Assembly: GCA_028554795.2 (NCBI GenBank)
Contig: CM068824.1
Coordinates: 157,836,789-157,900,788 of the forward strand
Direction: 5' to 3'
From: Sinohyriopsis cumingii
Taxonomy: Eukaryota; Mollusca; Bivalvia; Unionida; Unionidae
Length of the DNA: 64,000 nt
Position numbers and translations under genes: made by a program. This document shows, piece by piece, positions 23,464 through 44,315 of this stretch. Position 1 is the stretch's first letter. The number at the start of each line of letters is the position of its first letter. The notes under the pieces are model-generated. The model made no database searches, was not told the DNA's origin, and saw only the letters and a program-made list of their open reading frames with translations.

Positions 23464-23860
23464 AGTAGTTAAGTGGGATACTCTACGTACAATGGGAATT
23501 AGCATTACAGACCCCCCTTGGGACAATCTACGTACAATGGAAATTTAACATGGCGAAAAATCGTGGGTCAATCTACGTACAAGGGGAATTTAACATGGGA
23601 ATAAATCGTGGGTCACTCTACGTACAAGGGAAATTGAATATGGCGAAAAATCGTGGGTCACTCTACGTACAAGGGGAATTTAACATGGGGAATAGAGTTT
23701 GGGCTTGTTAAGGGACAAGGGGAATTGAACATGGGATTTTTTTATTTTTTTAAAATTTAAAAAAAAAAAAAAAAAAAATTTTAAAAAAAGGGGTAGGCAA
23801 TTGAAAGGCTATCTCTTTTCGAGAAATATGGCTGGCCCTGAAAAGGGCCTTTGGGTTTAT
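23464..23860 (+). repeat. Left terminal inverted repeat of copy 2
   Basis: About 397 bp, matched by 43,940-44,315 on the opposite strand with few differences, mostly in the A/T run near 23,735-23,785. It contains five TCTACGTAC boxes spaced exactly 45 bp apart (23,482, 23,527, 23,572, 23,617, 23,662), each followed by AA-GGGAATT-AACATGG-like sequence. It also includes the inward-facing gene's 3' stem-loop. Confidence 0.95.
23834..23849 (-). terminator. Histone-type 3' stem-loop inside the left TIR
   Basis: On the minus strand GGCCCTTTTCAGGGCC, a perfect 6-bp stem with TTTC loop, 24 nt after the stop of the minus-strand gene. On that strand CCAGCCATA and TTCTCGAAAAGAGAT follow. The mirror copy in the right TIR serves right-end gene 3. 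Confidence 0.85.
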
Positions 23861-23873
23861 GTTAATATTAATA

Positions 23874-24104
23874 TTAACATAGATGGCGTCTGTCACATCT
23901 TCTTCTTCTTAAACTCCTTCTAACTGCAGGTCCATACACAAGTACCCTCTTGAGACATCCTTGTCTTTCTATGTAAACTCTTCTCATCCATAGACTAGTA
24001 TCTGTCCTATCAACAATAGTCCACTTGGACCGGACATACATGAGCATGTCCGTCCTAAACATCATGGAAGAAACAAGGGTGGATGACTCGAATGTGGTCC
24101 ACAT
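23874..24104 (-). CDS. Left-end gene 1: small basic protein
   Basis: 76 aa, nearly identical in copy 3 (48,713-48,943), so it is a real gene. The first half is hydrophobic/mixed (STLVSSMMFRTDMLMYVRSKW); the C-terminus is Arg-rich, SLRRRRCDRRHLC. It could bind DNA or act as a small nuclear protein; no family recognised. Transcription runs towards the element end, from a TATAAATA at 24,149-24,156 (minus strand) about 45 nt before the ATG, and ends at a histone-type stem-loop inside the TIR. Confidence 0.65.
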   Translation of the reverse strand: MWTTFESSTLVSSMMFRTDMLMYVRSKWTIVDRTDTSLWMRRVYIERQGCLKRVLVYGPAVRRSLRRRRCDRRHLC

Positions 24105-24140
24105 CTTGAAGCGACGAGAACAGGTGAATCAATGCAGTGA

Positions 24141-24280
24141 ACTGTGCTTATTTATAGGCAGAGGAAGGATTGAAACGGATTGAGTTCATTCACCAATCCG
24201 AACACGCGTTACAAAATTCAGTCAGCTCGCATCCAATCCGAAGAGAGCAGTCTGAGACGTCACGTAGTCTATATAGATTC
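24141..24280. promoter_or_regulatory. Divergent promoter with CCAAT and CRE-like sites
   Basis: TATAAATA for the minus gene (24,149-24,156), two CCAATCCG boxes (about 24,192 and 24,234), a GACGTCAC CRE-like site (24,256-24,263) and TATATAG (24,270-24,276) for the plus gene. The layout, a bidirectional CCAAT/CRE promoter between two stem-loop genes, resembles metazoan histone gene pairs. Copy 3 has the same arrangement at 48,980-49,115. Confidence 0.7.
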
Positions 24281-24323
24281 GCTAGTGCTTGTGTACAGTC
24301 AATCTATGCGACAGTGATTCAAC

Positions 24324-24903
24324 ATGACGGAAACTCAGAAAACGATCCATTGGGGTGCACCAGCAGGGGAGACTGACCAAGGGAACCCGGACTTACTTTC
24401 AGAAGAGGTACAATGGGATTTTGTGGATTTTCTTACCTCGCAAGAATTTGTTCCGGAACCTTCGTTACCTTCTTCATTACCGCAAGTGGAGAATTTTAGA
24501 CAGAGACAGAAAGAAGAATTGGAGAAATTTATACAACGACAAAAGGAAGCGGAACAAGCTTTTCTCTTACAGCAGCAGCAAGAAGAAGAGGTAAGAAAAA
24601 AAACAACAGCAACAACAGCAAGAAGAAGTATCAGCAAAGAAACAAGAGGGTGAAAATCAAACGGTCACGGTACTGTTGGACATTTTAACGGAGTTAAGAA
24701 GTCTGAAACAAATGTATCAGACTTCTTTATTACGACCGAAGAGAATACGACCTTCCCGAGCTAAACACGTTAACCCTGTAACTAAGCCTACCGTACCACC
24801 CTTAGTGATTTCAACCCAATCATCATCATCATCAACATTACCAAGTCCAGAAGTAGGCATTGGCCGTGGCAAAGGCTTAAGGCAGTTAAAGTTCATTGCT
24901 TAA
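24324..24903 (+). pseudogene. Left-end gene 2: Gln-rich coiled-coil protein with frame change
   Basis: Starts MTETQKTIHWGAP, has an acidic segment and a long Gln/Glu/Lys coiled coil. At a run of 8 A (about 24,597-24,604), preceded by a splice-donor-like AGGTAAG, the frame changes. The first frame stops at 24,653. The second frame continues as DILTELRSLKQMYQTS and a Pro/Ser-rich tail to 24,903. Copy 3 has 6 A at the same place and also changes frame. Either both copies are broken there, or the site is spliced or slippery. Function unknown. Confidence 0.6.
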
Positions 24904-24929
24904 ACTCACCCCCTACACCAAAATAAAAA

Positions 24930-24945
24930 AGCCCTTTTCAGGGCC
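24930..24945 (+). terminator. Histone-type 3' stem-loop
   Basis: AGCCCTTTTCAGGGCC with a 5-bp stem plus TTTC loop, 26 nt after the stop, followed by ACCCACA and then TTCTCGAAAAGAAAT. ACCCA directly after the stem is the classic histone flank. Confidence 0.85.
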
Positions 24946-25255
24946 ACCCACATTTCTCGAAAAGAAATATAATTTCAATTGCCAATAACTAAAAAAAAAT
25001 AATGAACAACCCATTTTACCCCTATAGTACGTGTCTGTATATGAGTGCGTGAGTGTACGTTCTTATTTTAAAATCATAAATCAAAGACACTTACCTTATA
25101 TCATTAATTTATTCTTTTATCCATTGTTACAATCCAATTCACAATTCACAACGCAACACTTTAATTAAAAGTTCATTGACTTCTTCTATCTCCTTATTTA
25201 GTCTCTCTGTTTTTTGAATTTCTTCACTGTCGCACTCTTTTCCTCTTCTTCCTCC
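24946..25255. other. Intergenic space between two convergent genes
   Basis: The 3' regions of the plus-strand left-end gene and the minus-strand zinc-knuckle gene. On the minus strand an AATAAA lies at 25,108-25,113, about 145 nt after the zinc-knuckle stop, so that gene uses an ordinary poly(A) signal. Nothing else seen. Confidence 0.6.
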
Positions 25256-25660
25256 TCACTTTCTTCCCTTCTTCTCCTGTTTCTTTTTCTTCACCTGTCT
25301 GCTTTCTTCCTCTGAAAAATCCCTCTCTTCTTCCGAAGAATCCCTCTCTTCTTCTGAAGAATTCGTTTTTTCTTCTGACTTCTCTTGTTTCTTTTTTGGG
25401 CAATCTGGAGACCAATGTCCTTTTTCTTTACAATAATAACAGGTATCTTGACTTTTGTCTTTTTTAGCCCCTGTTTTTGTTCTTTTTTGACGGTCTGGAC
25501 ACTCTGAAGACCAATGCCCTTTCTTCTGACAGATATAGCAAGTATCTTGACTTTTATCTCGAAAGGAAGGAGAGTAGTCCGTGGGCTGGTCTGAAGAGAA
25601 TTTTCTAATGACCCCTCGCAAAGCTCTGACGAAACGTTCCATCTGGGTAGTCTCTTCCAT
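25256..25660 (-). CDS. CCHC zinc-knuckle protein
   Basis: 134 aa. Two CCHC knuckles, CYICQKKGHWSSEC and CYYCKEKGHWSPDC, 31 residues apart, then an acidic Ser/Glu-repeat and a Lys-rich tail. Such knuckles bind single-stranded nucleic acid, as in retroviral nucleocapsids. The ATG at 25,660 was chosen because the minus-strand TATATAAAAGG at about 25,715-25,725 would place the transcript start after the upstream in-frame ATG at 25,708. It is divergent from PolB and shares a 130-bp promoter region with it. Conserved in copy 3. Confidence 0.8.
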   Translation of the reverse strand: MEETTQMERFVRALRGVIRKFSSDQPTDYSPSFRDKSQDTCYICQKKGHWSSECPDRQKRTKTGAKKDKSQDTCYYCKEKGHWSPDCPKKKQEKSEEKTNSSEEERDSSEEERDFSEEESRQVKKKKQEKKGRK

Positions 25661-25794
25661 CGTTGTGCTCGGTTTGAGAGTGAAATGAATAGTGAAAGGA
25701 CAAGACACACACCCTTTTATATACGCTGGTCTGCCATGACTATAAATTAGTCTATGGTGTTTAAACTTGAGTCATTTGATGTTTTACACTCAAG
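25661..25794. promoter_or_regulatory. Divergent promoter of zinc-knuckle gene and PolB
   Basis: Minus-strand TATATAAAAGG near 25,715-25,725 and plus-strand CTATAAATTAG near 25,740-25,750, the latter about 45 nt before the PolB ATG. Closely conserved in copy 3 (52,910-52,990). Confidence 0.65.
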
Positions 25795-28700
25795 ATGAAA
25801 CGATCCAATTCATTTCAGAAGAAAGAAGAAGAAAGTAAGAGGCAGAAACGTGATCTATCGCCTCGTACCAGGGCTGAAATCTTGGCACAAATTCATGCCA
25901 GTGATTTTGAAGAGGACATGAGTGAACCAGAATTTGAAACCTCTAAACCAAGTTCACCACCCTTAGTCAACCCTGAAAAATACTATTCCATTCGAGAGAC
26001 GGAAAAGCGCTCCTCTAGAAAATTTAGAACCACGGCTTACAAATACACGGTGAAGTTTAAAGATTTCAAGGCCGAAGTGCCGTTGGAGAAAGCAGAAGTG
26101 TTTATCACTGGGGTGTGGGATTCTTTGCTCACTGCACTCAAGCGACAATGTCAACCCAAAGAAGACGATCGCTTGAGACTTTCCATACAACACGACGGTT
26201 TGAAATCCCCTGTTTGGATCGAGGTTAGCACCCCTGCAGAATTGACCGCTTCCAAAGTCATGGACAAGATTCAACACGTACAACAATCCAATGACAAGTT
26301 TGACATCACCGATGGAAATGCCACACTGGACATGACCCACGTCTCTCCTCCTCAAGGGACAGGACGCAAAAAGATGTTATTGGTGGACGACCTTCGCAAC
26401 ACCAAAACAAGTCTCGTCCGAATTAACAACCCCAAGGACCAGATGTGTTTAGCCCGTGCCATCGTGGTGGGACGAACCTATGCCGACAAGAACGACACGG
26501 TAGAATGGAAAAGAACCTGGAACACTATTCAACGTTCCCATCGAGCCAAACAACGAAATGAAGCAGAACTCCTGTTGCAACAAGCTGACCTGTCTAAAGA
26601 CACACCCTGTGGCATTCCTGAAATGCAAAAATTGCAAGATGTCCTAGCTCCACGCTACACCTTGAAAGTGCACCCTCAAGAAATGCGCGGGCCTCTGTTG
26701 TTTCGAGGTCAACATTTTAAGGACGGAAAATACATTCATGTCTATTATCACGATGACCATTTCGATACCATTACCAGTATCACCGGATTCCTAGGATACG
26801 GTTATTATTGTGAGAAATGTGATTATGGTTATAACAATCGAGAGCAACACAAGCATTGTGGATCGAAATGCCCAGGATGTTTGGCCTCTCCACCCTGTCT
26901 GAGCGAAGAACCAGTGCCTTGTTCAACTTGTCTGCGCACGTTTGTCAGCCCTACCTGTTACCAACAACATCTGAAAACACAAGGTTCACAGAAGAAATGT
27001 GCTTGTCAATTGCTGAGATTGTGCCCTACCTGTGGACAAGGCATACTTACCAATAATGCCAAGGCACAAGTATGTCGAGGAAAGAAAAAATGTCACATTT
27101 GTCACCACATCGTGGACTTGGAACACCAATGCTACGTGCAAAAATACCAACCCCCACCAGAGAAAGAGGACGATCAAAAGAAGAAAGGGAATTTCATCTT
27201 TTTCGATTTCGAATGCATGCAAGAGACCGGCATTCACATCCCTAATTTCTGCGTGGCTCATCGAGCGTGCGAGAAGTGCATTCAAGAACCTATTTTCAGT
27301 CATTGCCCTCACTGCAGCAAGATTCCCGGAGGGCGTGAAAAAATCTTTCGGGGACCGAACACGTTAGCCGATTTTGCCCAATGGGTCTTAGACCCCATCG
27401 ACAAGACGTGGAGCCAAGAGGACATCGAACGTTACGGAGATTGTCATCGTCATGCCACGGTGATGGTTCACGATTTCTTCGGATACGATGGACAGTTTCT
27501 TTTGAGATACTATACGGAACAAGGCACCGAGCGTCCTAAAGTGACTTTGAACGGAGCCAAAATCATTTTCATGCAAGTGGGACAAGTGCAGTTTAAAGAT
27601 TCGATGAGTTACTTGGCCATGCCTTTGAGTCGATTGCCTAAAACGTTTGGAATGACAGAAATGGCTAAAGGGTACTTTCCACACTTTTTCAATACGGAAA
27701 CTAATCAACACGCCGTTCTACCCCATTTGCCTGAGGCTCACTATTACGACCCGACAACATGCGTACCGAACAACGAGAAGCTTTCTACGCTTGGTACCAG
27801 GCTCACGCCTCGGACCCTTTCGACTTTCAGGAAGAAATGCTAAAGTATTGTCGTTCCGACGTGGACATTTTACGACGTTGCTGTGGAAAATTTCGAGAAC
27901 TGTTCATGGAACACGGAGGGGTCGATCCTTTGAAAGAAGCTTGCACCATTGCCAAAGCGTGTTCCTTAGTGTATCGACAACGATTCATGCATGAAAACAC
28001 CGTGGCTGTCATCAGCCCTCAAACGACTCACTTTGTCAAACGTCAATACTCGGTCAAAGCCCTACGTTGGTTACATTACCTGTGCGACAAGGAAGACAAA
28101 TGGATTCAGCATGCCCGTAACGGAGGAGGCGAAAAGACCATCGGAACGTATTCGGTCGATGGCTGGGACTTAGAAAACCCCAAGATCGTGTACGAGTTTA
28201 ACGGTTGCTTATTTCACGGATGTCCCGTCTGTTACCCTGACCGTGACACTAAAAATCAGTTTTTGCAACGAACCATGGAAGACTTGTACCAGGACACTTC
28301 TCAGCGGCGCCTAAAGTTGGAACAGGAAGGATACCAAGTGGTGGAAATGTGGGAACACGAGTACGATCACCGTATGAAAACCGATCCCGAGTTTAAACGC
28401 CTCGTGGAAAGTTACCAGTTCATGGACCCGCTGAACCCGAGGGATAGTTTGTACGGAGGAAGGACCAATGCCACCTGTTTGCTGTACCAAGCCGACGAAG
28501 AGAAAGGAGAAGAAATCAAATACTTGGACGTGTGTTCGCTGTATCCCTACGTGTGCAAATATTGTCGCTTTCCTGTAGGGCACCCGCAATTGTTCACGGA
28601 ACACATCGACCTGAAAAACATTCGACAATACGAAGGCTTGATCAAGTGCAAAGTTTTGCCTCCCACGAACCTATACCATCCCGTCTTACCTCACCATTGT

Positions 28701-29831
28701 CAAGGCAAACTGATGTTTCCCTTGTGCCGTACTTGTGCCGAAACGTGGAACCAAGATCAGCCTTGTCAGCACAGCCAGGAAGAACGGGCCTTGACGGGAA
28801 CCTGGGTCAGCGTAGAATTGTTCAAAGCTCTGGACATGGGATACCAACTGTTAGAAGTGTACGAAATTTGCCACTTTCCTAAGACACAACAATACCACAA
28901 GGGTGACCCTACTCAGAAAGGCATTTTCGCCGACTACGTGGATGCCTTTTTGAAACTGAAGCAAGAAGCCAGCGGCTATCCTTCCTGGTGTCACACTCCC
29001 GAAGACCAAATAAAATTCAAAGAGAAATACTACGAACAAGAAGGCATCACTTTAGACCACATCGAGAAAAACGAAGGCAGGCGATCGTTTGCCAAAGTGA
29101 TGTTAAATTGCTTGTGGGGTAAAATGGCACAAAGACCGTGTTTACCCAAGACGGAATATTTGACAGAACCTTCCCGCTACTTCCAGATGATTCACGACAA
29201 AACCAAATACATGAAACACGTGGACGTCGTTCGAGAGGATTTGATCTTGGTCAATTACGAAGAAGATTTAGACTTTGTACAAGACGACCCTTTTGGACAT
29301 GTCATCATTGCGGCTTACGTGACAGCCCATGCTCGCTTAAAATTGTACGAAGCTTTAGAACTGTTAGAAGAACGCGTCCTGTACTTTGACACGGACAGTT
29401 GCATCTACATCCATCACCCGATTGAACATCACCCTGACATCGAAGGAGACCGTTTAGGAGCCTGGACAGACGAGCATCCCGACGACAAGATTCTAAGTTT
29501 CGTCAGTGGTGGTCCCAAAATTTACGGCTACGAATACCGGGACAAACAAGGAGAAGTGCACACGACGTGCAAAGTGAAAGGACTGACTCTGAATCATCGT
29601 ACCAGTCGAGTGGTCAACTTTGGGGTATTGAAAGAAGCCTTGCAATCGGGAGAGGATGGAAACTTTAAAGTGACCACCTATCAACCGAACAAGATTGTAC
29701 GTTTACCCACTCACCACATCGTCAGTCGACCCTTGGAAAAAGTCTATCAAATCGTGTATCAGAAGCGAGTGCAACTACCCAACCACTTTACTTTGCCGTA
29801 TGGACACGTTGGTATAAAACATTGGTTGTAA
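25795..29831 (+). pseudogene. PolB: Protein-primed DNA polymerase B, one frameshift
   Basis: Replicates the element from its termini with a protein primer. Order: an N-terminal domain of about 330 residues without recognised motifs; a Cys/His-rich insertion (YCEKCDYGY to HICHHIVD); exonuclease I FDFECM (D471, E473); exonuclease II HDFFGYDG (about 559-566); exonuclease III YCRSDVDIL; motif A DVCSLYPYV (28,527 on); motif B LNCLWGK; motif C FDTDS (DTDS at 29,388-29,399). The two polymerase aspartates are intact. One C is missing near 27,750, so the first frame ends at 27,843 and the rest is read in the next frame. In exonuclease II the usual Asn is Asp and the next Ser is Phe, unlike copies 1 and 3. 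Confidence 0.93.
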
Positions 29832-29854
29832 GAGGATAGTCACACGCTAGAAGG

Positions 29855-30313
29855 ACGACTTCGCCACAGCAAGAATCCAGTGAGAAACCCGATGAGAACT
29901 CCAAGTTCAAACCCTACCATTTTCCAGTCTTCTTACCTGACTATTGTGATTGTGCCCGTCGATTGGACACGTTTCAGAAATGGCCTACGGATTCGGAAGG
30001 ATTACCTTCTTCGCATGTTTTAGCTAGAACAGGATTTGTCTACTTGGGACCTGAGTCAGGATTGGGATATGAAGTACAGTGTTTCGCTTGTGGCCTGAAG
30101 TTACGAATGGATCTATGTATCTATAAAGATTCAGCTATTCTGGAACATACTCGATGGTCTCCGCACTGCCCTTACCTTTCTCTGGCCTTTCCACCCATCA
30201 CACTACGGTACAATGTTGACGGTACCTTAGAGACGGTACCTTCCAGAACAGGACATAAAAAACGTAAAAAAGGAAAGATGTACAAGCTGGAGACTGCATT
30301 GCGGCTAGTATAA
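29855..30313 (+). CDS. BIR-domain protein 1, ATG replaced by ACG
   Basis: Same BIR protein as 3425-3781 but with a complete tail: after the zinc site (CFACG, EHTRWSPHC) it continues into a basic GHKKRKKGK segment and stops at 30,313, about 152 aa in all. The start codon of copy 1 is ACG here (29,855-29,857). The next in-frame ATG (29,963) lies inside the BIR and would remove its beginning. ACG can initiate weakly in some viral genes, so this may be a leaky start or simply a lost gene. TATA-like GGTATAAAAC precedes it in the PolB end. Confidence 0.7.
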   Translation, partial: TTSPQQESSEKPDENSKFKPYHFPVFLPDYCDCARRLDTFQKWPTDSEGLPSSHVLARTGFVYLGPESGLGYEVQCFACGLKLRMDLCIYKDSAILEHTRWSPHCPYLSLAFPPITLRYNVDGTLETVPSRTGHKKRKKGKMYKLETALRLV

Positions 30314-30320
30314 AAAGGGG
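30303..30320 (+). promoter_or_regulatory. TATA box before the Cys-rich gene
   Basis: CTAGTATAAAAAGGGGC, overlapping the BIR1 stop and 60 nt before the ATG at 30,372. Conserved in copy 1 near 3870. Confidence 0.55.
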
Positions 30321-30371
30321 CTATGGTCAAGATCGATAGTTCATTGTGACTACCAAGACCGAGCGAACAAG

Positions 30372-30887
30372 ATGAATACTTTGAAAGAGACATCGTTCCA
30401 GTTTGGGGATTGTAGAAAAGTTGTATCTTCCTCTAGTGTGACTAATACTGGATGGATAAGACCCAGGCATTGCGACGGAAAATGTCCGGAAGGAAACTGC
30501 GATTGTCCATGTGGTTACCATTGTAATTGCGTAACGGAGTTCGCAGACGAGTGCGATTGTGAGCCTTGCGATGGGTACGATGCTGTACGTTGTGACCTGA
30601 GCGATGCCGTAAAGCATCATGGGAACTTTAGTGTCCCTACCCCTATCATGGAAAGGGATGCTGTGCGTGTCAAACCTGTGGGATGCGAAAGGGATGCCGC
30701 TCGTCCTCTTGGACATTTTACTGGGTTTCGTTTTAAAGGGGAAATGTTCACCTTCACGTCTAGCCCCTTACGGATGTCATCCAGCCTTGAGCAAACTCCT
30801 GTTCATGTCACCCAACCCTCATCGAAACGAACCTGTGAAAGACGAATATTCGTTTCCTGTGCGTTTGTCGGAATACTGCGACTTTGA
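30372..30887 (+). CDS. Cys-rich accessory protein
   Basis: 171 aa. It has a central cluster of cysteines (HCDGKCPEGNCDCPCG, then HCNC and CDCEPCDG) that may bind metal, then two DAVR-type segments. The extra 35-residue Cys cluster is missing from copies 1 and 3. The last 83 nt overlap the BIR2 gene in another frame; the tail read here (EQTPVHVTQPSSK...) is the shadow of BIR2 coding sequence, so the true functional end is uncertain. Unknown family. Confidence 0.5.
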   Translation: MNTLKETSFQFGDCRKVVSSSSVTNTGWIRPRHCDGKCPEGNCDCPCGYHCNCVTEFADECDCEPCDGYDAVRCDLSDAVKHHGNFSVPTPIMERDAVRVKPVGCERDAARPLGHFTGFRFKGEMFTFTSSPLRMSSSLEQTPVHVTQPSSKRTCERRIFVSCAFVGILRL

Positions 30888-31116: not shown

Positions 31117-31127
31117 AGTAACTTACC

Positions 31128-31391: not shown

Positions 31392-31478
31392 CATTCTTGG
31401 ACGTTACCCTGAATGGCAGTGGTCAGAAATTACTCACTATGTGGATTACTTTTGTGAATTGTACGGACTGACCTATTC

Positions 31479-32721: not shown

Positions 32722-32905
32722 AAGACCCTTTCGGGAGGACACTTGTGTGACCTTACCCCCTACTATAGAACTGGTTAGAACATTACCCAAAACATGTTGT
32801 ACAGACACTTGTGTTTATTCCACGTTCATAGTTATTATGTGCCTTTTATCCTTGTACTTAAGCCTTTGGCTTTTATGTATTTTTGTCTTTCGTATTCATG
32901 TTTGA
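32618..32905 (+). CDS. Tail-anchored membrane protein
   Basis: 95 aa from this ATG. Pro/Thr/Glu-rich front (TVPEEPVTQDRTVVDRPERP), cysteine cluster TCCTDTC, then a C-terminal span of about 25 hydrophobic residues with a short basic end. Upstream in-frame ATG at 32,561 is possible. Conserved across all three copies, although copy 3 keeps only this C-terminal part. Confidence 0.6.
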   Translation: MHESCSRKKVTFQPVLVTVPEEPVTQDRTVVDRPERPFREDTCVTLPPTIELVRTLPKTCCTDTCVYSTFIVIMCLLSLYLSLWLLCIFVFRIHV

Positions 32906-32936
32906 AAAAAAAAAATTCAATAAACGTGTTCTGAAA

Positions 32937-32949: not shown

Positions 32950-32995
32950 TCTTGTCTTGTCTGTTTTTCGTGTCACAAGTGACATTTCTCACACC

Positions 32996-35191: not shown

Positions 35192-35240
35192 AAAGGCCCT
35201 CGGAAGTCGCAAGATCTCAGAATCGACCCCTGACAACCCC

Positions 35241-35843: not shown

Positions 35844-35891
35844 CCTCTTCCAAGAGTGGGTGCCTTATTAAGACACCAATCAACACAAAAA

Positions 35892-37001: not shown

Positions 37002-37006
37002 CCATC

Positions 37007-37420
37007 ATGCCTTTTCACACAGACGCAGCTACGTCGACCACTCCTCCTTCACCTAGTTCTTCTGTGCAAGAGTTACAAAAACAACCCTTGTGGGTGTGGT
37101 GTGGAGAACGTGTGCCTAAAACGCAAATCGTCTTTTTCTGCCAAATCTTCGTAGTGTATTGTGTCATCGGGGCAGCCATCGCCAATTTGAGTTTGCAACA
37201 AGGAGACAAACAATTGTGGACCATTTTATTGAGCAGTTGCATCGGATACCTACTTCCCAATCCCTCCCTGAAATTCTCCTCGAACGGGAACCCCGGGAAC
37301 CTTGTGTCCAGTGCCAGGGCCAGTCACCACTACAGCCACAATCAGAACCCCATTTTGGGCGGAGACACGCCTCTGACGTCCAGTAACCCCTCGGACAGCC
37401 ACAGAACTCTGGAATTATGA
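37007..37420 (+). CDS. Small two-pass membrane protein
   Basis: 137 aa: a Ser/Thr-rich front, then TQIVFFCQIFVVYCVIGAAIANL and LWTILLSSCIGYLL as two hydrophobic spans, and a polar tail rich in Asn/Ser ending RTLEL. The first true ATG is at 37,007, 6 nt after the integrase stop. Its TGA overlaps the ATG of the next gene (ATGA at 37,417-37,420), which hints at coupled translation. Function unknown. Confidence 0.65.
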   Translation: MPFHTDAATSTTPPSPSSSVQELQKQPLWVWCGERVPKTQIVFFCQIFVVYCVIGAAIANLSLQQGDKQLWTILLSSCIGYLLPNPSLKFSSNGNPGNLVSSARASHHYSHNQNPILGGDTPLTSSNPSDSHRTLEL

Positions 37421-38337
37421 GTCACCAAAACCAATTTTACTTAACCTTACCCAGTGACAGTTCCATGGAGGTGTTTCCCCACAACACGTTGTGCTGTTAC
37501 ACGGCCAAATTACCTCAGGCCATCCCCTTAGATCACGAAGCCCATTGGGAAGTGGCTTTAGTAGAAATCATTCACCCGACCCAAGTCCACAATGTCCTTC
37601 CCAATCAAAATTTTTTTGATGTGGAAGTTCATGACGAACAATTGCAACAGTGGATGGATAGCAATGTCAAATATGACAAGAAAACCCGTACACAAAAGTA
37701 CACCACCTATCACTTTGTTATTCCCCCAGGCTATTATTTTGGTGGTCAACATTTGGTCAGCACCATTACCTCCAGGTTTAATGTCGTGTTTCTGAAAGCT
37801 TTGGAGCATGTCAACAAAAGTGTCACCCTGGAGTACCACAAAGCAGATCGTCGCTTCATGATGAAATTTGAACGGAGTAAAATCCTGTCCATTTTATTTT
37901 GTCCTGAATTGTTTGACATGTTGGGCGGGGACATGAACCTGAGAATGACCATGCTCAAGAAAAACGAATTACCCATCGTTTACGACAACGAGTCGTTTAG
38001 CAAGTTATTTCGTGCTCCGGTAGAACTGAACCAAGGACTGAATTTGATGTTCGTGTATTCCGATGTGGTGGAGTACAACGTGGTGGGACACACCTCCGTA
38101 CCGTTACTGCGTGTCATTCCTTTCAAAGTGGATTCTGCCACGAACGCTGACGAAGAAGGTGGAAACACTTACCACATCCACCGCGAATTTGTCCATCCTC
38201 ACTATTTGCCGGTCAGCAAGTCGTATTTGGACACGGTCAACATTGCTATAAAAGGAGATTTGGGACAAAATATTCCATTCACCAAAGGAAACGTCACGGT
38301 GAAACTCCATTTTCGAAAACGGTTCTCTCACGACTAG
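37417..38337 (+). CDS. Penton-like minor capsid protein candidate
   Basis: 306 aa, intact. Beta-rich sequence of the size of a single jelly-roll: FYLTLPSDSS, HWEVALVEIIHPTQ, FVIPPGYYFGGQHLV, VTLEYHK, FDMLGGD, LNLMFVYSDVVEYNVVG, HFRKRFSHD. In Polintons the protein encoded next to the major capsid is thought to be the penton; I assign it on position, size and family resemblance from memory. The central 120 residues differ strongly from copy 3 although both flanks are nearly identical. Confidence 0.7.
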   Translation: MSHQNQFYLTLPSDSSMEVFPHNTLCCYTAKLPQAIPLDHEAHWEVALVEIIHPTQVHNVLPNQNFFDVEVHDEQLQQWMDSNVKYDKKTRTQKYTTYHFVIPPGYYFGGQHLVSTITSRFNVVFLKALEHVNKSVTLEYHKADRRFMMKFERSKILSILFCPELFDMLGGDMNLRMTMLKKNELPIVYDNESFSKLFRAPVELNQGLNLMFVYSDVVEYNVVGHTSVPLLRVIPFKVDSATNADEEGGNTYHIHREFVHPHYLPVSKSYLDTVNIAIKGDLGQNIPFTKGNVTVKLHFRKRFSHD

Positions 38338-38347
38338 TAAGTAAGTC

Positions 38348-38764
38348 ATGTATCCAGTGTACCGAGGGGTTGCTCGACAGCGAGGACACGGTTTAGGAGA
38401 CATGCTGAAATCGGCCTTTCGTTCGGTGGCCCCGGTGTTGAAACCGATGGTGACACGCGGATTGCACGCCTTGAAAGATGCGGCACTGACGCAAGGCAAA
38501 GAATTTCTCCAAAATGTCATCATCGACAAACAAAACCCTAAAGAAGCCTTCATGATGGCTGGCAAAAATGTCTTGCTGCAAACGGGCAAAGATATTTTGG
38601 GCCGACGAGACACACCTATAAATGCCCTGCATGTTACCGAGTCAGGCATTCAGCAAGGACAAGGCAGAAAGAGACGACGAAGAAAACACCCTTTCACCAG
38701 ACTTCAAGATAGAAAGGCCAAGAAAAGAAGAACCGTTCGAGACTTAGACGTTTTCGATTATTGA
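38348..38764 (+). CDS. pVI-like basic protein
   Basis: 138 aa. Conserved start MYPVYRGVARQRGHGLGD, an amphipathic helical stretch (MLKSAFRSVAPVLKPMVTRG), a middle with KEFLQNVI and GKNVLLQTGK, then a RKRRRRKH nuclear-localisation-like cluster and RDLDVFDY end. An N-terminal amphipathic helix with a basic tail resembles adenovirus protein VI, but this is a build-level analogy. A TATA-like CCTATAAATGCC lies in its coding region at 38,614, 160 nt before the capsid start. Confidence 0.6.
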   Translation: MYPVYRGVARQRGHGLGDMLKSAFRSVAPVLKPMVTRGLHALKDAALTQGKEFLQNVIIDKQNPKEAFMMAGKNVLLQTGKDILGRRDTPINALHVTESGIQQGQGRKRRRRKHPFTRLQDRKAKKRRTVRDLDVFDY

Positions 38765-38776
38765 AACACAGAAAAA

Positions 38777-40088
38777 ATGATGCACCGAGAATCTTGCGCT
38801 TGTTCCAAGACGGAACTGGATCTGTTTGCCATGCCCCCCCACCATGATGACCATGCAAGAATCCCAATGGGTGGAATTTCACCCCGTCTCCTCATTGACA
38901 TCCTCAGCTCCCATCGAGTTTGAAATCAAAAGACAGCCCGAAGATTACATCGATCTGAATAGCAGTTACTTGTACTTGAAAGTCAAAGTTGTCGATGAGG
39001 ACAATTCGACCCTAGATGGCGATGAGGTAAGAGCTCCCGTCAACAATTTTATGCATTCCTTGTTTAGCTTAGTGGACTTGTACTTGAACAACAAACTGGT
39101 CAGCAGCAGCATGGATATTTACCCTTATCGAGCGTACCTGGAAAATCTCTTGACGTACGGAATAGACGCCAAGAACACTCATCTCAATGCCTCTGTGCTA
39201 TGGAAAGTTGACGAAGCTGAAAAGTTTGAAAATTTCGAAACTGATGAAAAGAAAGACAACAATGACGGACTTCTAGAACGAAGAAACAGAATCAAAGATG
39301 GACAGAGTTTAGAACTGATGGATCGTTTGCATTTGGACATGTGGTTACAAGAGAAATATTTGCTAAACGGGGTGAATGTTCGCCTGAGACTGAATCGTAG
39401 CAGTGCCACTTTCCATTTGATAGGTACTACTGCTTGCAAAACTGTCATCGAGGAAGCCAGGCTCTACGTACGACGCGTGGAAGTGTTACCTAAAGTGGGT
39501 AACGACATCAGTCAAACATTGAGCAGAACGACCGCTAAGTATCCCATACGACGCGTGGAAGTGAAAACCTTCACCATTCCCAAGGGACAGCGATCCATGA
39601 TCGAAGATCATTTGTTGCAACGACAGTTACCCAAACGTTTGATCGTTGGTATCGTCGAGAATGAAGCCTTCAACGGAGTTTTGGGTAAAAATCCTTTCTA
39701 CTTTCAACACTTTGGCGTGTCCAAGATCGAAGTCAGTCGCGATGGCAAGACCTTGTGTACCCGACCGTTCGAACCTAACTTTGAGAAGAAGAATTACTTG
39801 AGATCGTACTTGTCCCTGTACGAAGCCACCGGCCAGTTAGGAACCAAATCCAGTCACGGTATTACGTACGACGATTATGTAGGAGGCTACGCTTTGTGGG
39901 CTTTCGATTTCACTCCTGACCAAGGCAGCGACGAGGGACATTTCCACCCTATAAAATCCGGCTAGATTCGTGTGGAAATTCAGTTTGCAAACCGAGACCC
40001 TGATGTAACGGTGAACGTCATCCTGTATGCAGAATTCGATAATACCATAGAAATCAACAGTTTGAGAGAAGTCATTCTAGATTACTAG
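38777..40088 (+). pseudogene. MCP: Major capsid protein (F54H12.2-like), two defects
   Basis: The double jelly-roll major capsid protein of Polintons, which databases often carry under the name F54H12.2-like. It starts MMHRESCACSKTELDLF at 38,777. A run of 7 C at 38,834-38,840 (6 in copy 3) shifts the frame; an ATG at 38,844 could still start a protein lacking about 22 residues. From there the frame reads WVEFHPVSSLTSS, DYIDLNSSYLYLKVKV, MDRLHLDMWLQEKYLLNGV, and RVEVLPKVGNDIS to TAG at 39,963-39,965, which replaces CAG. The normal end (LREVILDY) is at 40,086-40,088. CCTATAAAATCC at 39,949 may serve the next gene. Confidence 0.9.
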
Positions 40089-40093
40089 AAGCT

Positions 40094-40597
40094 ATGGAAG
40101 ACTGTTATCCCTCTTTACAAAGTGGAGAAACTTTGGAGATGAAATGTGAGGAGACCATGGAAGGAGGAGAATCTCAAGACAAAGAAGAAGTTGTCATAAT
40201 GAAGTCGAGATGGCCAGAACAAGAAGACCATTTAGTCTCCTGTTTTGCCAAACACTTGGTCGATAAAATGACGAAACTGATCAAGAAAAATTGCTATGGA
40301 TGTCAAAACGATCATCCCAGTCAAATTCAACACGATAAATGCCTGATGTTGAGTCAAGAAGAAAAACTGGACGAGTATCTGGACGAAGCTTGGAGTCTCA
40401 TCTCGAACAAAGACGTGTTGCACCAGTGGTATAAAGACTTGCGTGAACATTCTTGTCCACCATTAACCACTCAAGAGATCCATCGTATCGAAGCTCTCCT
40501 GAATCAGAGTGAGGAAACAGAACGAATAACCGTTTATTCGTCAGACATTTTCAAGCAAAAAGTCAGGATCGAATTGATCACTTATTATTACCTGTGA
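40094..40597 (+). CDS. Conserved CYGC-motif protein
   Basis: 167 aa, intact. Acidic N-terminus (CEETMEGGESQDKEE), then the signature CYGCQNDHPSQIQHDKCL, a likely zinc site with two Cys, two His and a further Cys, and a C-terminus ending RIELITYYYL. I recall this signature from genes next to the capsid in other animal Polintons, without a known function. It starts 5 nt after the capsid stop. A GTATAAAGAC near 40,428 may be the promoter for the protease. Confidence 0.7.
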   Translation: MEDCYPSLQSGETLEMKCEETMEGGESQDKEEVVIMKSRWPEQEDHLVSCFAKHLVDKMTKLIKKNCYGCQNDHPSQIQHDKCLMLSQEEKLDEYLDEAWSLISNKDVLHQWYKDLREHSCPPLTTQEIHRIEALLNQSEETERITVYSSDIFKQKVRIELITYYYL

Positions 40598-40621
40598 AGA
40601 AGAAAAAAACCACACAAAACA

Positions 40622-41182
40622 ATGGATACCTGGGAACTTTATTACCTTTTGAACCACAGTTCGTATACGGCTTCTTGGAATCCTGTCGTCTGTGCTAAAG
40701 ATGAACTCCCTCATCGCAAACCTAAAGACCATCAAGCTTACGTGATCAACACGGACGACAGTCATCTCCCAGGAACCCACTGGGTAGCCGTTTACTTTCC
40801 TCAAGAAGGATGTGTGGAATATTTCGATTCGTACGGATTGCCCACTTTGGAAGACGATATCATCGACTTTATGAGAAGAAATGCTCAGACCACCCGATTC
40901 AATAATGTGAAATTACAAGGCACAGATTCCTTGGTGTGTGGACAGTACTGTGTGTATTTTCTGCATCATCGCAGCCTGGGCTATTCCTTAGAACATTTAG
41001 TGACTCATTTTGATCCTCGTTCTTCTGCTAGAAACGATGTGAAAGTAGATCGATGGTTTTGTGACCATTATGCTTATCTTTTGTCTCAAGCTAGGAAACG
41101 TAGTGTCCATCAATGGCCTAATGATTTCCAGCAGTGGAAATCACAATTTCATTCACAACGTTGTCAGCCCTGTTTAAAGTAG
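40622..41182 (+). CDS. PRO: Adenain-type cysteine protease, intact
   Basis: 186 aa, clan CE peptidase that in adenoviruses cleaves capsid and core precursors. Catalytic residues by pattern: H53 (GTHWVAVYF), D69 (EYFDSYG), Q99 (LQGTDS) and C110 (CGQYCVYFL). Length matches adenain (about 200 aa). It is the last gene of the core block; AATAAA at about 41,294 supplies an ordinary poly(A) signal. Confidence 0.93.
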   Translation: MDTWELYYLLNHSSYTASWNPVVCAKDELPHRKPKDHQAYVINTDDSHLPGTHWVAVYFPQEGCVEYFDSYGLPTLEDDIIDFMRRNAQTTRFNNVKLQGTDSLVCGQYCVYFLHHRSLGYSLEHLVTHFDPRSSARNDVKVDRWFCDHYAYLLSQARKRSVHQWPNDFQQWKSQFHSQRCQPCLK

Positions 41183-41424
41183 ATTGTGAATTAAGAAAAA
41201 AATGTTTGAGATTTGAAAAAAATTGTTTGATGTTATAGTGTTGTATTATTGTTAAAATGTTAGTGTTGTTGTTTAGTGTTAAGTGATTTTTGAATAAAAA
41301 ATGTTGTGTTTTGAAAAAAATGCCTTTGTCTTTTGTTTAGCTATAAGAATGTTGGATTGATGCTCTTTCATTTCTTACTATCCCTCTCATGACACTCACT
41401 GAACGTTGCGGCTCGAAAACCGTG
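41183..41424. promoter_or_regulatory. 3' region of the core block
   Basis: T-rich, GTTT-rich spacer with TGAATAAAAAATG around 41,293 as poly(A) signal. Similar to 14,765-14,996 of copy 1. No gene seen. Confidence 0.5.
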
Positions 41425-41453
41425 GGGGGATGTTTTCCTTCACGTCCGCGCTT
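41425..41453 (+). promoter_or_regulatory. Right-end promoter box 1
   Basis: GGGGGATGTTTTCCTTCACG then TCCGCGCTT, with TTTAAGAACC after it, 65 nt before the ATG at 41,518. Same as 14,997-15,025. Confidence 0.65.
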
Positions 41454-41517
41454 TGACTTTAAGAACCGGGGTTGTTTCCAGTCTAACCATCCATTGTCGA
41501 CTCATCCTCCTACGAAG

Positions 41518-41880
41518 ATGTGCTCCAAACTAGCTAAACTCAACGAAGCCTACGTGAATTTGCATAGGGTCAGACACAGTCTGATACCGAAGCCAGAAGA
41601 AATAGAGAATGTGAGAATGTTAAAAATCACTGAAGACCTGATAGAAGAACTCTTCAGAGAAGAAATGAACAGGGAAAAAGAAGAATGGACAGAGAAGTAC
41701 AGACTTCAGAGACAGCAGCAGCAGCAGCAGCAACAACAACAACAGCAGCAGCAACCTGAACCTGACAGAGGCTTTGTCGATTGCCGTATCGACACCAAAG
41801 AGTTCTTCTTCTCTTTCCGAAGAAGCACACCTATTGCCAGAAAGTCTATCATCAGAGGACATCGCATTCTTAGAAACTAA
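41518..41880 (+). CDS. Right-end gene 1: coiled-coil protein with poly-Gln
   Basis: 120 aa. Helical charged N-terminal 65 residues, then about 17 consecutive Gln encoded by CAG/CAA (41,710-41,756), the conserved FVDCRIDTKE segment and a basic tail. The Gln run is longer than in copy 1, showing repeat-length instability. The N-terminal pattern (MCSKLAKLNEAYVNL) resembles that of right-end gene 2. Confidence 0.65.
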   Translation: MCSKLAKLNEAYVNLHRVRHSLIPKPEEIENVRMLKITEDLIEELFREEMNREKEEWTEKYRLQRQQQQQQQQQQQQQQPEPDRGFVDCRIDTKEFFFSFRRSTPIARKSIIRGHRILRN

Positions 41881-41929
41881 AAAAAGAATGCCATAGAAAA
41901 CAAAAAAAAAAAAAAAAAAAAAAAAAACC

Positions 41930-41945
41930 AGCCCTTTTCAGGGCT
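41930..41945 (+). terminator. Perfect histone-type 3' stem-loop
   Basis: AGCCCTTTTCAGGGCT with TTTC loop, 49 nt after the stop and after an A-rich run; ACCCC follows, and CTCTAGAAAAGAAAT starts 9 nt after that flank. A back-up AATAAA lies near 42,012. Confidence 0.85.
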
Positions 41946-42309
41946 ACCCCAATACTCTAGAAAAGAAATAACGATCCATTTGCCAATGTGTGTAGGTAAA
42001 GTAGTGTGAAAATAAACACTAACTCTTTTTTTAAAAATGTGAGGGTATGTGTTTGTGTGTTTGTGTTAGTAAGTGCTTAAGTAAGTTGGTATGGATAGTA
42101 GATTAAAATGATGTCTTTTTTTGGTGTTTGAGGTGTATATTTGGAGTTAGATTGGATTGCTTTGCGTATGTGGATAGTCTATTGAAGTGATTTATAAAAA
42201 ATTTTAAAATAGTGATGGGTAGCATAAAAAAGTGAGTGAGTGTTTCTTTTAGGTCCGCGCGTTGTTTCTTTTGGTCATGATCTAGGTAAGATCAATTTTA
42301 TGTTTTTTA
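41946..42309. other. Spacer between right-end genes 1 and 2
   Basis: GT-rich spacer with the purine element after the stem-loop, AAAATAAACACT near 42,010, and a TTTTAGGTCCGCGCGTTG half-box with GGTCATGATCTAGGTAAG (about 42,250-42,300) that is repeated at 43,183-43,220. No gene seen. Confidence 0.5.
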
Positions 42310-42339
42310 GGGGGATGTTTTCCTTCACGTCCGCGCTTT
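42310..42339 (+). promoter_or_regulatory. Right-end promoter box 2 with TATA
   Basis: GGGGGATGTTTTCCTTCACG, TCCGCGCTTT and then AGTATAAATTG, 64 nt before the ATG at 42,403. Confidence 0.7.
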
Positions 42340-42402
42340 CAGTATAAATTGAAACTCGCTGGACAGTCTAGCTACCCTTGTTGATTGTTCAACACTAGAA
42401 AA

Positions 42403-42876
42403 ATGAGCAGCAGACTGAGTAAATTGATGGACCTTCAGATGCATCTGGAGTATGCCAGATGCCTCTTGAATGAGCTGGCTGCAGAGGCCCTTGTGGAAGA
42501 AGCCAGGATAGAACAAGAGGAAGAAGAAAGAAAACTGAAAGAAGAGGAAGAAAAAAAGAGAGGGATAAGGTCTCACGTGTTCATGATAGAGAAATGTGAG
42601 GTGAAGCCCTGGGTGATGGAACCTCCACAGGCAATGACTGCACCACAGTTACAACCACAACAAGAGGTAAGGAGACCAATTGTTCATCCTCGAATGAGGA
42701 ATAGAAGAGAAAGAAGACAAAGGGAAGAAGAAGTGTTCACTATTCCGCAAACGGAGGAGTGGGATAGTGAAGCCACTCACCCCCCGTCAGCTCTTCCAAC
42801 CACTTCAGTCAATTGGGCCAATGATTGGAGTAGGCGTTGTGTCTGTGGTGCCAGACCCGGAAGGTGCCACCATTAG
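42403..42876 (+). CDS. Right-end gene 2: coiled-coil protein
   Basis: 157 aa. A helical start (LSKLMDLQMHLEYARCLLNELAAEA), a Glu/Lys/Arg coiled coil, a Gln/Pro region, a second Arg/Glu cluster (RNRRERRQREEE) and a C-terminal CVCGARPGRCHH. The middle is missing in copy 1. The two Cys pairs at the end could bind metal. Same promoter box and stem-loop arrangement as its neighbours. No family recognised. Confidence 0.6.
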   Translation: MSSRLSKLMDLQMHLEYARCLLNELAAEALVEEARIEQEEEERKLKEEEEKKRGIRSHVFMIEKCEVKPWVMEPPQAMTAPQLQPQQEVRRPIVHPRMRNRRERRQREEEVFTIPQTEEWDSEATHPPSALPTTSVNWANDWSRRCVCGARPGRCHH

Positions 42877-42902
42877 CCAGGTGCCTCTGAAGTTCCAAAA
42901 AC

Positions 42903-42918
42903 AGTCCTTTTCAGGGCT
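42903..42918 (+). terminator. Histone-type 3' stem-loop
   Basis: AGTCCTTTTCAGGGCT, a 6-bp stem with one T-G wobble and TTTC loop, 26 nt after the stop; ACCCC and CTCTAGAAAAGAAAT follow. Confidence 0.82.
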
Positions 42919-43159
42919 ACCCCAATACTCTAGAAAAGAAATAACGATCCATTTGCCAGTGTGTGTAGGTAGAGTAGTGTAATTATAAACACTAACTCTT
43001 TTTGAAAAAAATGTGAGGGTATGTAATTGTGTGTTTGTGTGTTTGTGTTTGTAAGAGCTCAGGTATGTTTGTGTGAATAGTAGATTATGGGTTTCTTTAT
43101 TGTTTCTTTGCGTATGTGGAGAGTATAGTTTGGGTTTGATTATATGAAATGAGAAAAGT

Positions 43160-43267
43160 GGGGGATGTTTTCCTTCACGTCCGCGCGTTGCTGTTTCTTT
43201 GGTCATGATCTAGGTAAGATCAATTTTATGTTTTTTAGGGGGATGTTTTCCATCACGTCCGCGCTTT
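43160..43267 (+). promoter_or_regulatory. Two right-end promoter boxes before gene 3
   Basis: Box a 43,160-43,188 (GGGGGATGTTTTCCTTCACG...) has no TATA right after it. Box b 43,238-43,267 (GGGGGATGTTTTCCATCACG...) is followed by CACTATAAGAACCC and lies about 60 nt before the ATG of gene 3. The TCATGATCTAGGTAAGATCA stretch between them also precedes box 2. Confidence 0.65.
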
Positions 43268-43327
43268 CACTATAAGAACCCACCACGTTCGTCGTTGGAA
43301 CCATTCTACGGAATAAAGACAAGGAAG

Positions 43328-43926
43328 ATGGTAGCTGTAACAGAATTGTTCAACCAGTTGAAAGACATTTGGTATTGGATGGTGGATGGAGCTTATGCAG
43401 TGGAAAGGATTGAACGAGAATGGAAGCATGAACTTACCCGAGATTTTGTCAGAAGGCAAGTGACTAACCTAAAATCAGCCATGGATCTGGTGGCAGAGAT
43501 GATAGAAGAAGAAGTAAAAAGACTAAGAGGCTTTATAGATCCAGAATATGTAAAGATTGGTCACTTGAAAGAAGCCATGGATAATGTGCTAGAAGTCAGG
43601 TGTTTTTTGGAAGAGGTAATGGAATGGACAGAGTGGTCCTTTGTCAAAAAAGGCCTAGACACCAGCTTAAGAAATCGGAACAACTTATGAGAAAAGTAAT
43701 GGAGGAAGAAGTGAAAAAGATCAAAGACAAGTGGAGTAAAGAAAGAAAGGAGAAAGAAAACTTAAAGGAAAAAGAGGCCTTTGACAAACTCAACAACAAT
43801 TGGATCAAGATACAAGAGAAGTTCAGGGCTATGGGTCACCCAGACTGGTTACCTGAAAAAGAAAAAAGGAAGAACAAAGGAATTTTGGGAAAGATTAGGG
43901 GGTGGATGAGGAAATGGAGGAAATAG
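43328..43926 (+). pseudogene. Right-end gene 3, one small frameshift
   Basis: About 198 aa in the undamaged layout. An aromatic N-terminus (LFNQLKDIWYWMVDGAY), a helical middle (RLRGFIDPEYVKIGHLKEAMDN) and a long basic coiled coil ending in Trp-Arg-Lys-rich sequence. Two extra bases near 43,655-43,665 relative to copy 1 shift the frame, giving an early stop at 43,690. The 3' part is open to 43,926. Unknown family. Confidence 0.6.
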
Positions 43927-43939
43927 AAGAAGAAGCAGA

Positions 43940-44315
43940 ATAAACCCAAAGGCCATTTTCAGGGCCAGCCATATTTCTCGAAAAGAGATAGCCTTTCAAT
44001 TGCCTACCCCTTTTTTTAAAAAAATTTAAAAAAAAAAAAAAATCCCATGTTCAATTCCCCTTGTCCCTAAACAAGCCCAAACTCTATTCCCCATGTTAAA
44101 TTCCCCTTGTACGTAGAGTGACCCACGATTTTTCGCCATATTCAATTCCCCTTGTACGTAGAGTGACCCACGATTTATTCCCATGTTAAATTCCCCTTGT
44201 ACGTAGATTGACCCACGATTTTTCGCCATGTTAAATTTCCATTGTACGTAGATTGTCCCAAGGGGGGTCTGTAATGCTAATTCCCATTGTACGTAGAGTA
44301 TCCCACTTAACTACT
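43940..44315 (-). repeat. Right terminal inverted repeat of copy 2
   Basis: About 376 bp, reverse complement of 23,464-23,860. It contains the 45-bp spaced GTACGTAGA boxes, one inner CCCTAAACAAGCCC variant, and the stem-loop of gene 3. Confidence 0.95.
43951..43966 (+). terminator. Histone-type 3' stem-loop in the right TIR
   Basis: GGCCATTTTCAGGGCC: TTTC loop with one mismatch (C to A) compared with the left TIR copy. 24 nt after the stop of gene 3. CCAGCCATA and TTCTCGAAAAGAGAT follow. Confidence 0.8.

What the first reader, a model, noticed from the sequence alone, without database searches (positions are those of the whole stretch)
23834..43966. Histone-mRNA-type 3' stem-loops end the small terminal genes of a Polinton
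Five genes in copy 2 (one leftward, four rightward) are followed 24-49 nt after their stops by a stem-loop of the form GGCCCT-TTTC-AGGGCC, then an ACCCA-like flank, then about 10-14 nt later a purine element such as TCGAAAAGAGAT. This is the layout of replication-dependent histone mRNAs: SLBP stem-loop plus U7-binding downstream element. The core block (polymerase to protease) lacks it and has ordinary AATAAA signals. I do not recall histone-type 3' ends in Polintons or adintoviruses. They would give poly(A)-less, S-phase-coupled mRNAs for exactly the end genes.
Basis: partly seen in the sequence, partly recalled or inferred. Interest (0 to 1): 0.93.

Follow-up and report, generated by a model that had tools for sequence, protein, structure and literature searches.

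The report
Histone-type 3' ends on Polinton genes
In a large, probably mollusc, genome the small genes at the ends of Polinton virus-like elements carry the same stem-loop-plus-downstream-element ending as the host's own replication-dependent histone genes, which suggests that these elements use the cell's poly(A)-less, DNA-replication-linked messenger RNA pathway.

Summary
Rfam Histone3 matches eight places in the window (3 over the gathering score) and no other family is significant. All eight follow small end genes of Polintons, on the sense strand; none lies in the core. In copy 2 they start 24-49 nt after the stops. The host's histone repeat (H3, H4, H2B, H2A, H1) has the same 6-bp stem/UUUN loop, then 13-14 nt, then GAAAAG; so have all eight Polinton sites. 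Genome-wide, 45 of 45 inspected Histone3 loci (of 75 scored) hold Polinton end genes. Of 44 neighbouring end genes that had not brought in their locus, 40 have a clear stem-loop, 3 a worn one, 1 none. Two copies fetched by polymerase position have it at 4 of 4 left-end genes. A distant Polinton (polymerase 37% identical), in a bacterial genome bin, has stem-loop, flank and AAAGAG element after an end zinc-finger gene. Best reading: SLBP/U7 processing of end-gene mRNAs, without poly(A), probably tied to S phase. RNA was not tested. My searches found no report of it.

The parts
23464..44315 (.). Polinton copy 2 between its terminal inverted repeats (arms 23464-23768 and 44011-44315, 98%; 23779-23860 and 43940-44021, 99%)
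23874..24104 (-). L1, leftward end gene, 76 aa, Arg-rich C terminus
   Evidence: same gene in many genome loci
23834..23849 (-). L1 histone-type stem-loop GGCCCT-TTTC-AGGGCC, 24 nt after the stop, inside the inverted repeat
   Evidence: Rfam Histone3 35.6 bits, E 1.2e-6
23814..23822 (-). L1 histone-downstream-type element TCGAAAAGA
24324..24903 (+). L2 end gene (frame interrupted in this copy; open frames of 183-195 aa in other copies)
24930..24945 (+). L2 stem-loop, 26 nt after the stop
   Evidence: Histone3 33.2 bits, E 9.6e-6
24957..24965 (+). L2 downstream element TCGAAAAGA
41518..41880 (+). R1 end gene, 120 aa
41930..41945 (+). R1 stem-loop AGCCCT-TTTC-AGGGCT (A-U closing pair), 49 nt after the stop
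   Evidence: Histone3 28.2 bits, E 7e-4
41960..41966 (+). R1 downstream element GAAAAGA
42403..42876 (+). R2 end gene, 157 aa
42903..42918 (+). R2 stem-loop AGTCCT-TTTC-AGGGCT, 26 nt after the stop; weakest site
   Evidence: Histone3 21.9 bits, E 0.16; alternative fold
42933..42939 (+). R2 downstream element GAAAAGA
43328..43926 (+). R3 end gene (frame interrupted in this copy)
43951..43966 (+). R3 stem-loop with one stem mismatch, 24 nt after the stop, inside the inverted repeat
   Evidence: Histone3 24.7 bits, E 0.014
43978..43986 (+). R3 downstream element TCGAAAAGA
22087..22102 (+). copy 1 R3 stem-loop, 26 nt after the stop at 22060; downstream element at 22114
   Evidence: Histone3 37.0 bits
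48680..48694 (-). copy 3 L1 stem-loop, one base short in the 5' arm, 18 nt after the stop; downstream element at 48668 (-)
   Evidence: Histone3 26.6 bits
52145..52160 (+). copy 3 L2 stem-loop, 21 nt after a stop; downstream element at 52172
   Evidence: Histone3 38.4 bits
25795..41182 (+). core block (polymerase B, packaging-type ATPase, integrase, protease and others): no histone stem-loop; AATAAA at 32919 and 41293

Best explanation
The small genes at both ends of this Polinton family have histone-type 3' processing signals in place of, or in a few copies beside, ordinary poly(A) signals. Their transcripts would be bound at the stem-loop by host SLBP. The host U7 snRNP would recognise the GAAAAGA element 13-14 nt downstream, and CPSF73 would cut a few nucleotides after the stem, behind the ACCCA flank. 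That gives short mRNAs without poly(A), stable and translated mainly while the cell replicates DNA, and kept apart from the poly(A)-type core genes. SHOWN by sequence: the signals, their place, orientation and spacing, their identity with the host's own histone ends, and their recurrence in many copies and in one distant Polinton. INFERRED: cleavage, lack of a tail, SLBP/U7 use, S-phase gating, and the benefit. The benefit may be to have end-gene products only in replicating nuclei, with clean, compact transcription ends beside the inverted repeats.
For: Histone3 hits at eight end-gene 3' ends and nowhere else in 64 kb. In one 8.3-kb host repeat unit H3, H4, H2B, H2A and H1 have Histone3 stem-loops (35.0-39.4 bits), then 13-14 nt, then GAAAAG; the H2B stem-loop is letter for letter that of L1. 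All 45 inspected genome Histone3 loci contain a Polinton end-gene match. Ends outside the window that had not brought in their locus and are in none of the 75 hits: 40 of 44 with at least 13 of 16 matches, 3 with 12, 1 with 7; of the 43, flank ACCCA in 30, spacing 13 nt in 41 and 14 in 2. Polymerase-anchored copies L085 and L086 (2 of 57 rows taken): 4 of 4 left-end genes. Distant Polinton L001: 35.8 bits with ACCCC flank and AAAAAAGAGA. The second stem pair is G-C in 31 of 31 distinct sequences and the first switches between G-C and A-U. ACCCA before the cleavage site, the AAAGAG core and U7 CUCUUU are described for mouse histone H2a in PMC7026596 (passages). Negative controls: 0 of 84 bacterial genomes match at E 1e-4, 0 exact hits in viral contigs.
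Against: No RNA data. Within one gene family the stem-loop is not more conserved than some nearby 3' sequence. AATAAA or ATTAAA lies between stop and stem-loop in 9 of 75 gene ends and within 100 nt after it in 5 of 75 (for the 43 non-selected ends 4 and 0), so some copies could be polyadenylated. Two copy-2 sites are poor or mismatched. Host SLBP was not found (14 candidates, exon by exon) and U7 gave only sub-threshold hits. 26 of the 35 aligned stem-loops were picked by a degenerate stem pattern, which favours pairing. The case outside this host rests on one contig of unknown source (L001); three other stray Polinton pieces had no hit.
Confidence: 0.85

Rival explanations
1. The stem-loops work in DNA, as part of the inverted repeat (replication origin, priming, packaging), and resemble histone ends by chance.
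For: The L1 and R3 stem-loops lie inside the 99%-identical inverted repeat, so their likeness can be kept by repeat homogenisation.
Against: L2, R1 and R2 stem-loops lie outside that repeat, sense to the gene and just after its stop. Loop, spacing and GAAAAG match the host's five histone genes.
Confidence: 0.05
2. Relic or hitch-hiking: a host histone 3' end was captured with a gene and spread by duplication of end cassettes; it is no longer used and the mRNAs are polyadenylated.
For: R1 and R2 share UTR and upstream sequence. 3' sequence is similar within a family. Some ends carry AATAAA. The sequence behind the downstream element has a weak, uncorrected likeness to host H2A in 5 of 11 rows.
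Against: Stem-loop, flank and downstream element persist after different proteins (L1, L2, R1/R2, R3, R3') and in a Polinton with 37% polymerase identity. The A-U/G-C swap keeps the pair.
Confidence: 0.07
3. Decoy: the many stem-loops and downstream elements titrate SLBP or U7 and so disturb the host's histone supply, rather than serving the end genes' own mRNAs.
For: Many copies exist (75 scored hits is a lower bound).
Against: The stem-loops are placed as proper 3' ends of genes. There are no dosage data.
Confidence: 0.03

Closest known systems
Replication-dependent histone mRNA 3' ends (Rfam RF00032; SLBP/U7 snRNP pathway)
   Same: 6-bp stem with 4-nt U-rich loop, ACCCA-type flank, purine element of AAAGAG type at 13-14 nt, close behind the stop; stem-loop, spacing and GAAAAG as in the host's own histone genes
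   Different: The genes are Polinton end genes with no histone domain found; the R1/R2 class has an A-U first pair; host histone flanks in the one unit read are less ACCCA-like (ACACA, ACAAA, ATACA, ACACA, ACTTT)
Polintons/Mavericks and adintoviruses
   Same: Family-B DNA polymerase (PF03175), RVE-chromo integrase, A32-like ATPase, adenain-like protease, long inverted repeats; the polymerase is 43% identical to one listed as PolB-C of Rhodactis coral adintovirus
   Different: My searches found no report of histone-type 3' ends in them
Virus-encoded histone-like genes ('Histoid' of adomaviruses)
   Same: A link between animal DNA viruses and histones (PMC11071296, passages)
   Different: There the protein is histone-like; here only the RNA ending is

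Membership tests
Histone-type mRNA 3' end (SLBP/U7) | Covariance match to RF00032 | tested here: met
   3 of 8 window sites over the gathering score, 7 of 8 with E <= 0.014, the eighth E 0.16; 75 genome hits over it
Histone-type mRNA 3' end (SLBP/U7) | ACCCA-like flank between stem and cleavage site | tested here: met
   ACCCA in 30 of 43 non-selected ends, near variants in the rest; role of ACCCA from PMC7026596, passages
Histone-type mRNA 3' end (SLBP/U7) | Purine-rich downstream element at the host's own histone spacing | tested here: met
   GAAAAG at 13-14 nt in the five host histone genes of one unit and in all eight window sites
Histone-type mRNA 3' end (SLBP/U7) | No ordinary poly(A) signal | tested here: inconclusive
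   AATAAA/ATTAAA before the stem-loop in 9 of 75 and within 100 nt after in 5 of 75
Histone-type mRNA 3' end (SLBP/U7) | Host has SLBP and U7 snRNA genes | tested here: inconclusive
   SLBP domain search 0 hits; U7 best 29.3 bits, below 34. The host's histone genes with the same signals make the machinery likely.
Histone-type mRNA 3' end (SLBP/U7) | mRNA ends after the stem without poly(A); SLBP binding; S-phase control | not testable with these tools
   needs RNA or bench work
Histone gene | Encodes a histone | tested here: not met
   no histone domain in the end proteins scanned
Polinton/Maverick | PolB, RVE integrase, ATPase, protease, long inverted repeats | tested here: met
   (protease match weak, E 0.0079, below cut-off)
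Polinton/Maverick | Target-site duplication; capsid proteins | not tested
   the frame at 38826 (a candidate capsid by size and place only) has a homologue in L001 but no Pfam name

The most novel reading that the evidence does not exclude
Polintons/adintoviruses of several animal groups, not only of this host, have tied their end (regulatory or host-interaction) genes to the host's histone mRNA pathway. These genes then make poly(A)-less transcripts only in replicating nuclei. This would be a second natural class of SLBP/U7 substrates and an S-phase sensor built into an endogenous virus.
Probability: 0.5. Interest if true: 0.95.

Novelty: new variant of a known kind. Interest (0 to 1): 0.88.

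Why it matters
[quoted passage not shown] If these Polinton mRNAs are processed in that way, there is a second, mobile class. It would show a virus-like element coupling selected genes to host DNA replication through RNA 3' ends. Poly(A)-selected RNA-seq would then miss these genes, which may bear on why Polinton activity is hard to see (inference). It is directly testable with total RNA from the host.

Tried and rejected
Histone gene capture: no end protein scanned has a histone domain. Likeness of the 32 nt behind the downstream element to single host histone genes was tested in 55 comparisons (11 rows x 5 genes). H2A gave uncorrected p 0.008-0.022 for five rows of the L2 and R1/R2 types, and H3 gave 0.000 for one L1 row. 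The rows are related and nothing was corrected, so I do not claim capture; an H2A-like origin stays possible.

Purifying selection within a family: R2 stem-loop identity is 0.926 (15 copies), but 0.945 for a stretch further 3'; for L2 (20 copies) 0.953 against 0.954 in the coding end. So I rest the case on the likeness across different genes and hosts.

Other sources: viral contigs gave nothing. The stray Polinton pieces L002-L004 had no Histone3 hit. By their frames L002 and L004 show no recognisable end genes and L003 is only 3.6 kb, so I take them as neutral. The phage collection gave 5 weak polymerase matches, four Methanosarcina spherical virus records and one uncultured phage. 84 bacterial genomes: 0 hits (stricter filters, E 1e-4). 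U7 by DNA pattern did not complete.

Rows dropped: one search left out L046 (99.8% identical to L045) and tblastn hits that did not reach within 6 residues of the C terminus. Five of its 49 non-selected ends are the window's own, so 44 are counted. One search left out L035 and the ends that had brought in their locus. Of the 75 genome hits I read 45; of 57 polymerase rows I fetched beside 2.
Full report
WHAT WAS CHECKED. The window lies on contig C1 (193 Mb) of an unnamed 2.90-Gb genome, G000. It holds three copies of one Polinton family; copy 2 has both inverted repeats, 23464-44315. Copy 2 encodes polymerase B, an A32-like ATPase, an RVE-chromo integrase and an adenain-like protease (the protease match is weak). 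The polymerase and the host's histone H1 have oysters and mussels among their nearest named relatives, so the host is probably a bivalve. That is inference; no name was given.

A full Rfam scan of 64 kb found Histone3 at eight places and no other significant family: 52140, 22082 and 23854 over the gathering score (38.4, 37.0, 35.6 bits), then 24925, 41925, 48699, 43946 and 42898 below it (33.2, 28.2, 26.6, 24.7, 21.9 bits). All eight lie 18-49 nt behind the stop of a small end gene, on its sense strand. None lies in the core, where AATAAA follows the frame ending at 32905 and the protease. In all eight, GAAAAG begins 13-14 nt after the stem. Single sites are not all strong. R3 of copy 2 has a stem mismatch and R2 prefers another fold; R2's own E-value, 0.16, is no better than a chance match in the same scan. 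The bare 16-nt pattern occurs 6 times against 1.1 expected, and the highest of 200 shuffles also had 6.

THE HOST'S HISTONE GENES HAVE THE SAME ENDING. A histone-domain search of the host genome found tandem arrays with a repeat of about 8.3 kb (150 of 662 candidates scored). One unit (L084) has H3, H4, H2B, H2A and H1, each with a Histone3 hit of 35.0-39.4 bits. Their stem-loops are GGCCCTTTTTAGGGCC (H3, H4), GGCCCTTTTCAGGGCC (H2B), GGCCCTTTTAAGGGCC (H2A) and GGTCCTTTTCAGGACC (H1). In all five GAAAAG follows after 13-14 nt. The H2B stem-loop is letter for letter the L1 stem-loop. The host flanks (ACACA, ACAAA, ATACA, ACACA, ACTTT) are less ACCCA-like than the Polinton ones. A histone paper gives the logic: SLBP binds the stem-loop, U7 pairs with the downstream element (mouse core AAAGAG, U7 CUCUUU), ACCCA precedes the cleavage site, and CPSF73 cuts between (PMC7026596, passages seen).

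GENOME-WIDE. The host genome gave 75 scored Histone3 hits, all over the gathering score, out of 589,472 first-look candidates; this is a lower bound, and no histone gene need be in that list. I read 45 of the 75, including the six lowest; all 45 loci contain a match to a Polinton end-gene protein. Of the first 30, 25 have a further stem-loop by a simple pattern. I then found end genes by their proteins (L1, L2, R1, R2, R3, R3') and looked behind those that had not brought in their locus. Of 49 such ends 45 have at least 13 of 16 matches, 3 have 12 and 1 has 7. Without the window's own five ends this is 40, 3 and 1 of 44, and none of these 44 is itself among the 75 hits. Of the 43 with a stem-loop the flank is ACCCA in 30, ACCCC in 4, AGCCA in 3 and single variants in 6; the purine element lies at 13 nt in 41 and at 14 in 2; AATAAA/ATTAAA lies before the stem-loop in 4 and within 100 nt after it in none. 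Taking all 75 gene ends with a stem-loop, selected and window ones included (not the same 75 as the hits), the figures are ACCCA 59, spacing 13 in 69 and 14 in 4 with 2 unmatched, and poly(A) signals 9 before and 5 after. These neighbours lie in elements chosen for one stem-loop, so two copies (of 57 polymerase rows) were also fetched by polymerase position. Both have L1 and L2 with Histone3 hits of 35.6 and 41.2 bits, 4 of 4 genes. Of 31 distinct aligned stem-loops all keep G-C at the second pair; the first pair is G-C in 16, A-U in 10, G-U in 1 and unpaired in 4. The A-U form belongs to the R1/R2 class and may be one event; most rows were picked by a stem pattern, which favours pairing.

A DISTANT POLINTON. 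A scan of bacterial and archaeal genomes for the polymerase gave four stray pieces that look eukaryotic. L001, in a Bacteroidia bin, is 8.9 kb and Polinton-like throughout: polymerase 37%, integrase 34%, the frame at 38826 29%, protease 30% identical to the window. Its outermost rightward gene is an 89-aa C2H2 zinc-finger protein. Its stop is followed after 28 nt by GGCCCTTATCAGGGCC, then ACCCC, then AAAAAAGAGA, 35.8 bits. CCATTGT repeats follow (10 in the last 284 nt); the window's inverted repeats hold 2 each. The other three pieces have no hit and show no recognisable end gene, so they say little.

MECHANISM. Most likely these end genes are expressed as histone-type mRNAs: SLBP on the stem-loop, U7 on GAAAAGA, cleavage after the flank, no poly(A), translation and stability tied to S phase. 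Sequence, placement and identity with the host's own histone ends are shown; everything about the RNA is inferred. A plausible use is to have end-gene products only in nuclei that replicate DNA, with a compact terminator beside the inverted repeats. R1, R2 and R3 also share an upstream motif, so each looks like a self-contained cassette. The SLBP gene was not found by its domain and U7 only below threshold. The host's own histone genes make their presence likely.

AGAINST. Within a family the stem-loop is not more conserved than some of its surroundings. A few ends have AATAAA nearby. There is one case outside this host, of unknown source. No RNA was seen.

PRIOR ART. Full-text searches of the held library: histone stem-loop + Polinton, 0 papers; Maverick + histone mRNA, 0; Polinton + histone + stem-loop, 3, none of which by title concerns this (listing only); adintovirus + histone, 5, of which passages of PMC11071296 were read and concern histone-like proteins. 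Histone stem-loop + virus + SLBP gave 14 papers, 13 listed, none by title on viral histone-type ends (listing only); others (10 papers; 6 papers; 15 of 19,168 listed) likewise, listings only. Bivalve transposon papers turned up and were not read. Subscription papers are not held, so this is no proof of absence.

Searches recounted the genome figures.

Noticed in passing
window 41424, 42312, 43243 (approx.; a further one near 43160): R1, R2 and R3 share an upstream motif gggggatgttttcc(t/a)tcacgtccgcgc ahead of the gene, so each end gene looks like a promoter-gene-terminator cassette.
   Followed up: partly
window 23790-23812 (-), 24970-24985, 41975-41992, 43988-44004 (approx.): A second motif, (t)tcaattgcc / catttgcc, lies some 7-9 nt behind the downstream element in many copies; similar caattttg occurs behind host H2A and H2B. 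Function unknown.
   Followed up: partly
window 49120-51510 (approx.): Copy 3 carries an inserted stretch with a 562-aa open frame between L1 and L2; no Pfam match.
   Followed up: no
window 22530-22765 (approx.): Element resembling a tRNA-derived SINE, followed by an (AC)n run, between copies 1 and 2 (by eye; no tRNA scan was run).
   Followed up: no
L001-L004: Polinton pieces, apparently of eukaryotes, sit as stray contigs in public bacterial genome records.
   Followed up: partly
G000: Many of the 57 listed polymerase matches lie in open frames of about 1350 aa, so the family looks recently active in this host; two loci 10 kb apart (L045, L046) are 99.8% identical.
   Followed up: no
window 23874-24104 (-): L1 protein is small with a highly basic RRSLRRRRC-type tail, conserved in many copies; a copy from L022 has no Pfam match.
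   Followed up: no
L038:927-1475: L2 protein has 20 relatives in the protein collection (55-88% identical), all unnamed or 'hypothetical'.
   Followed up: partly
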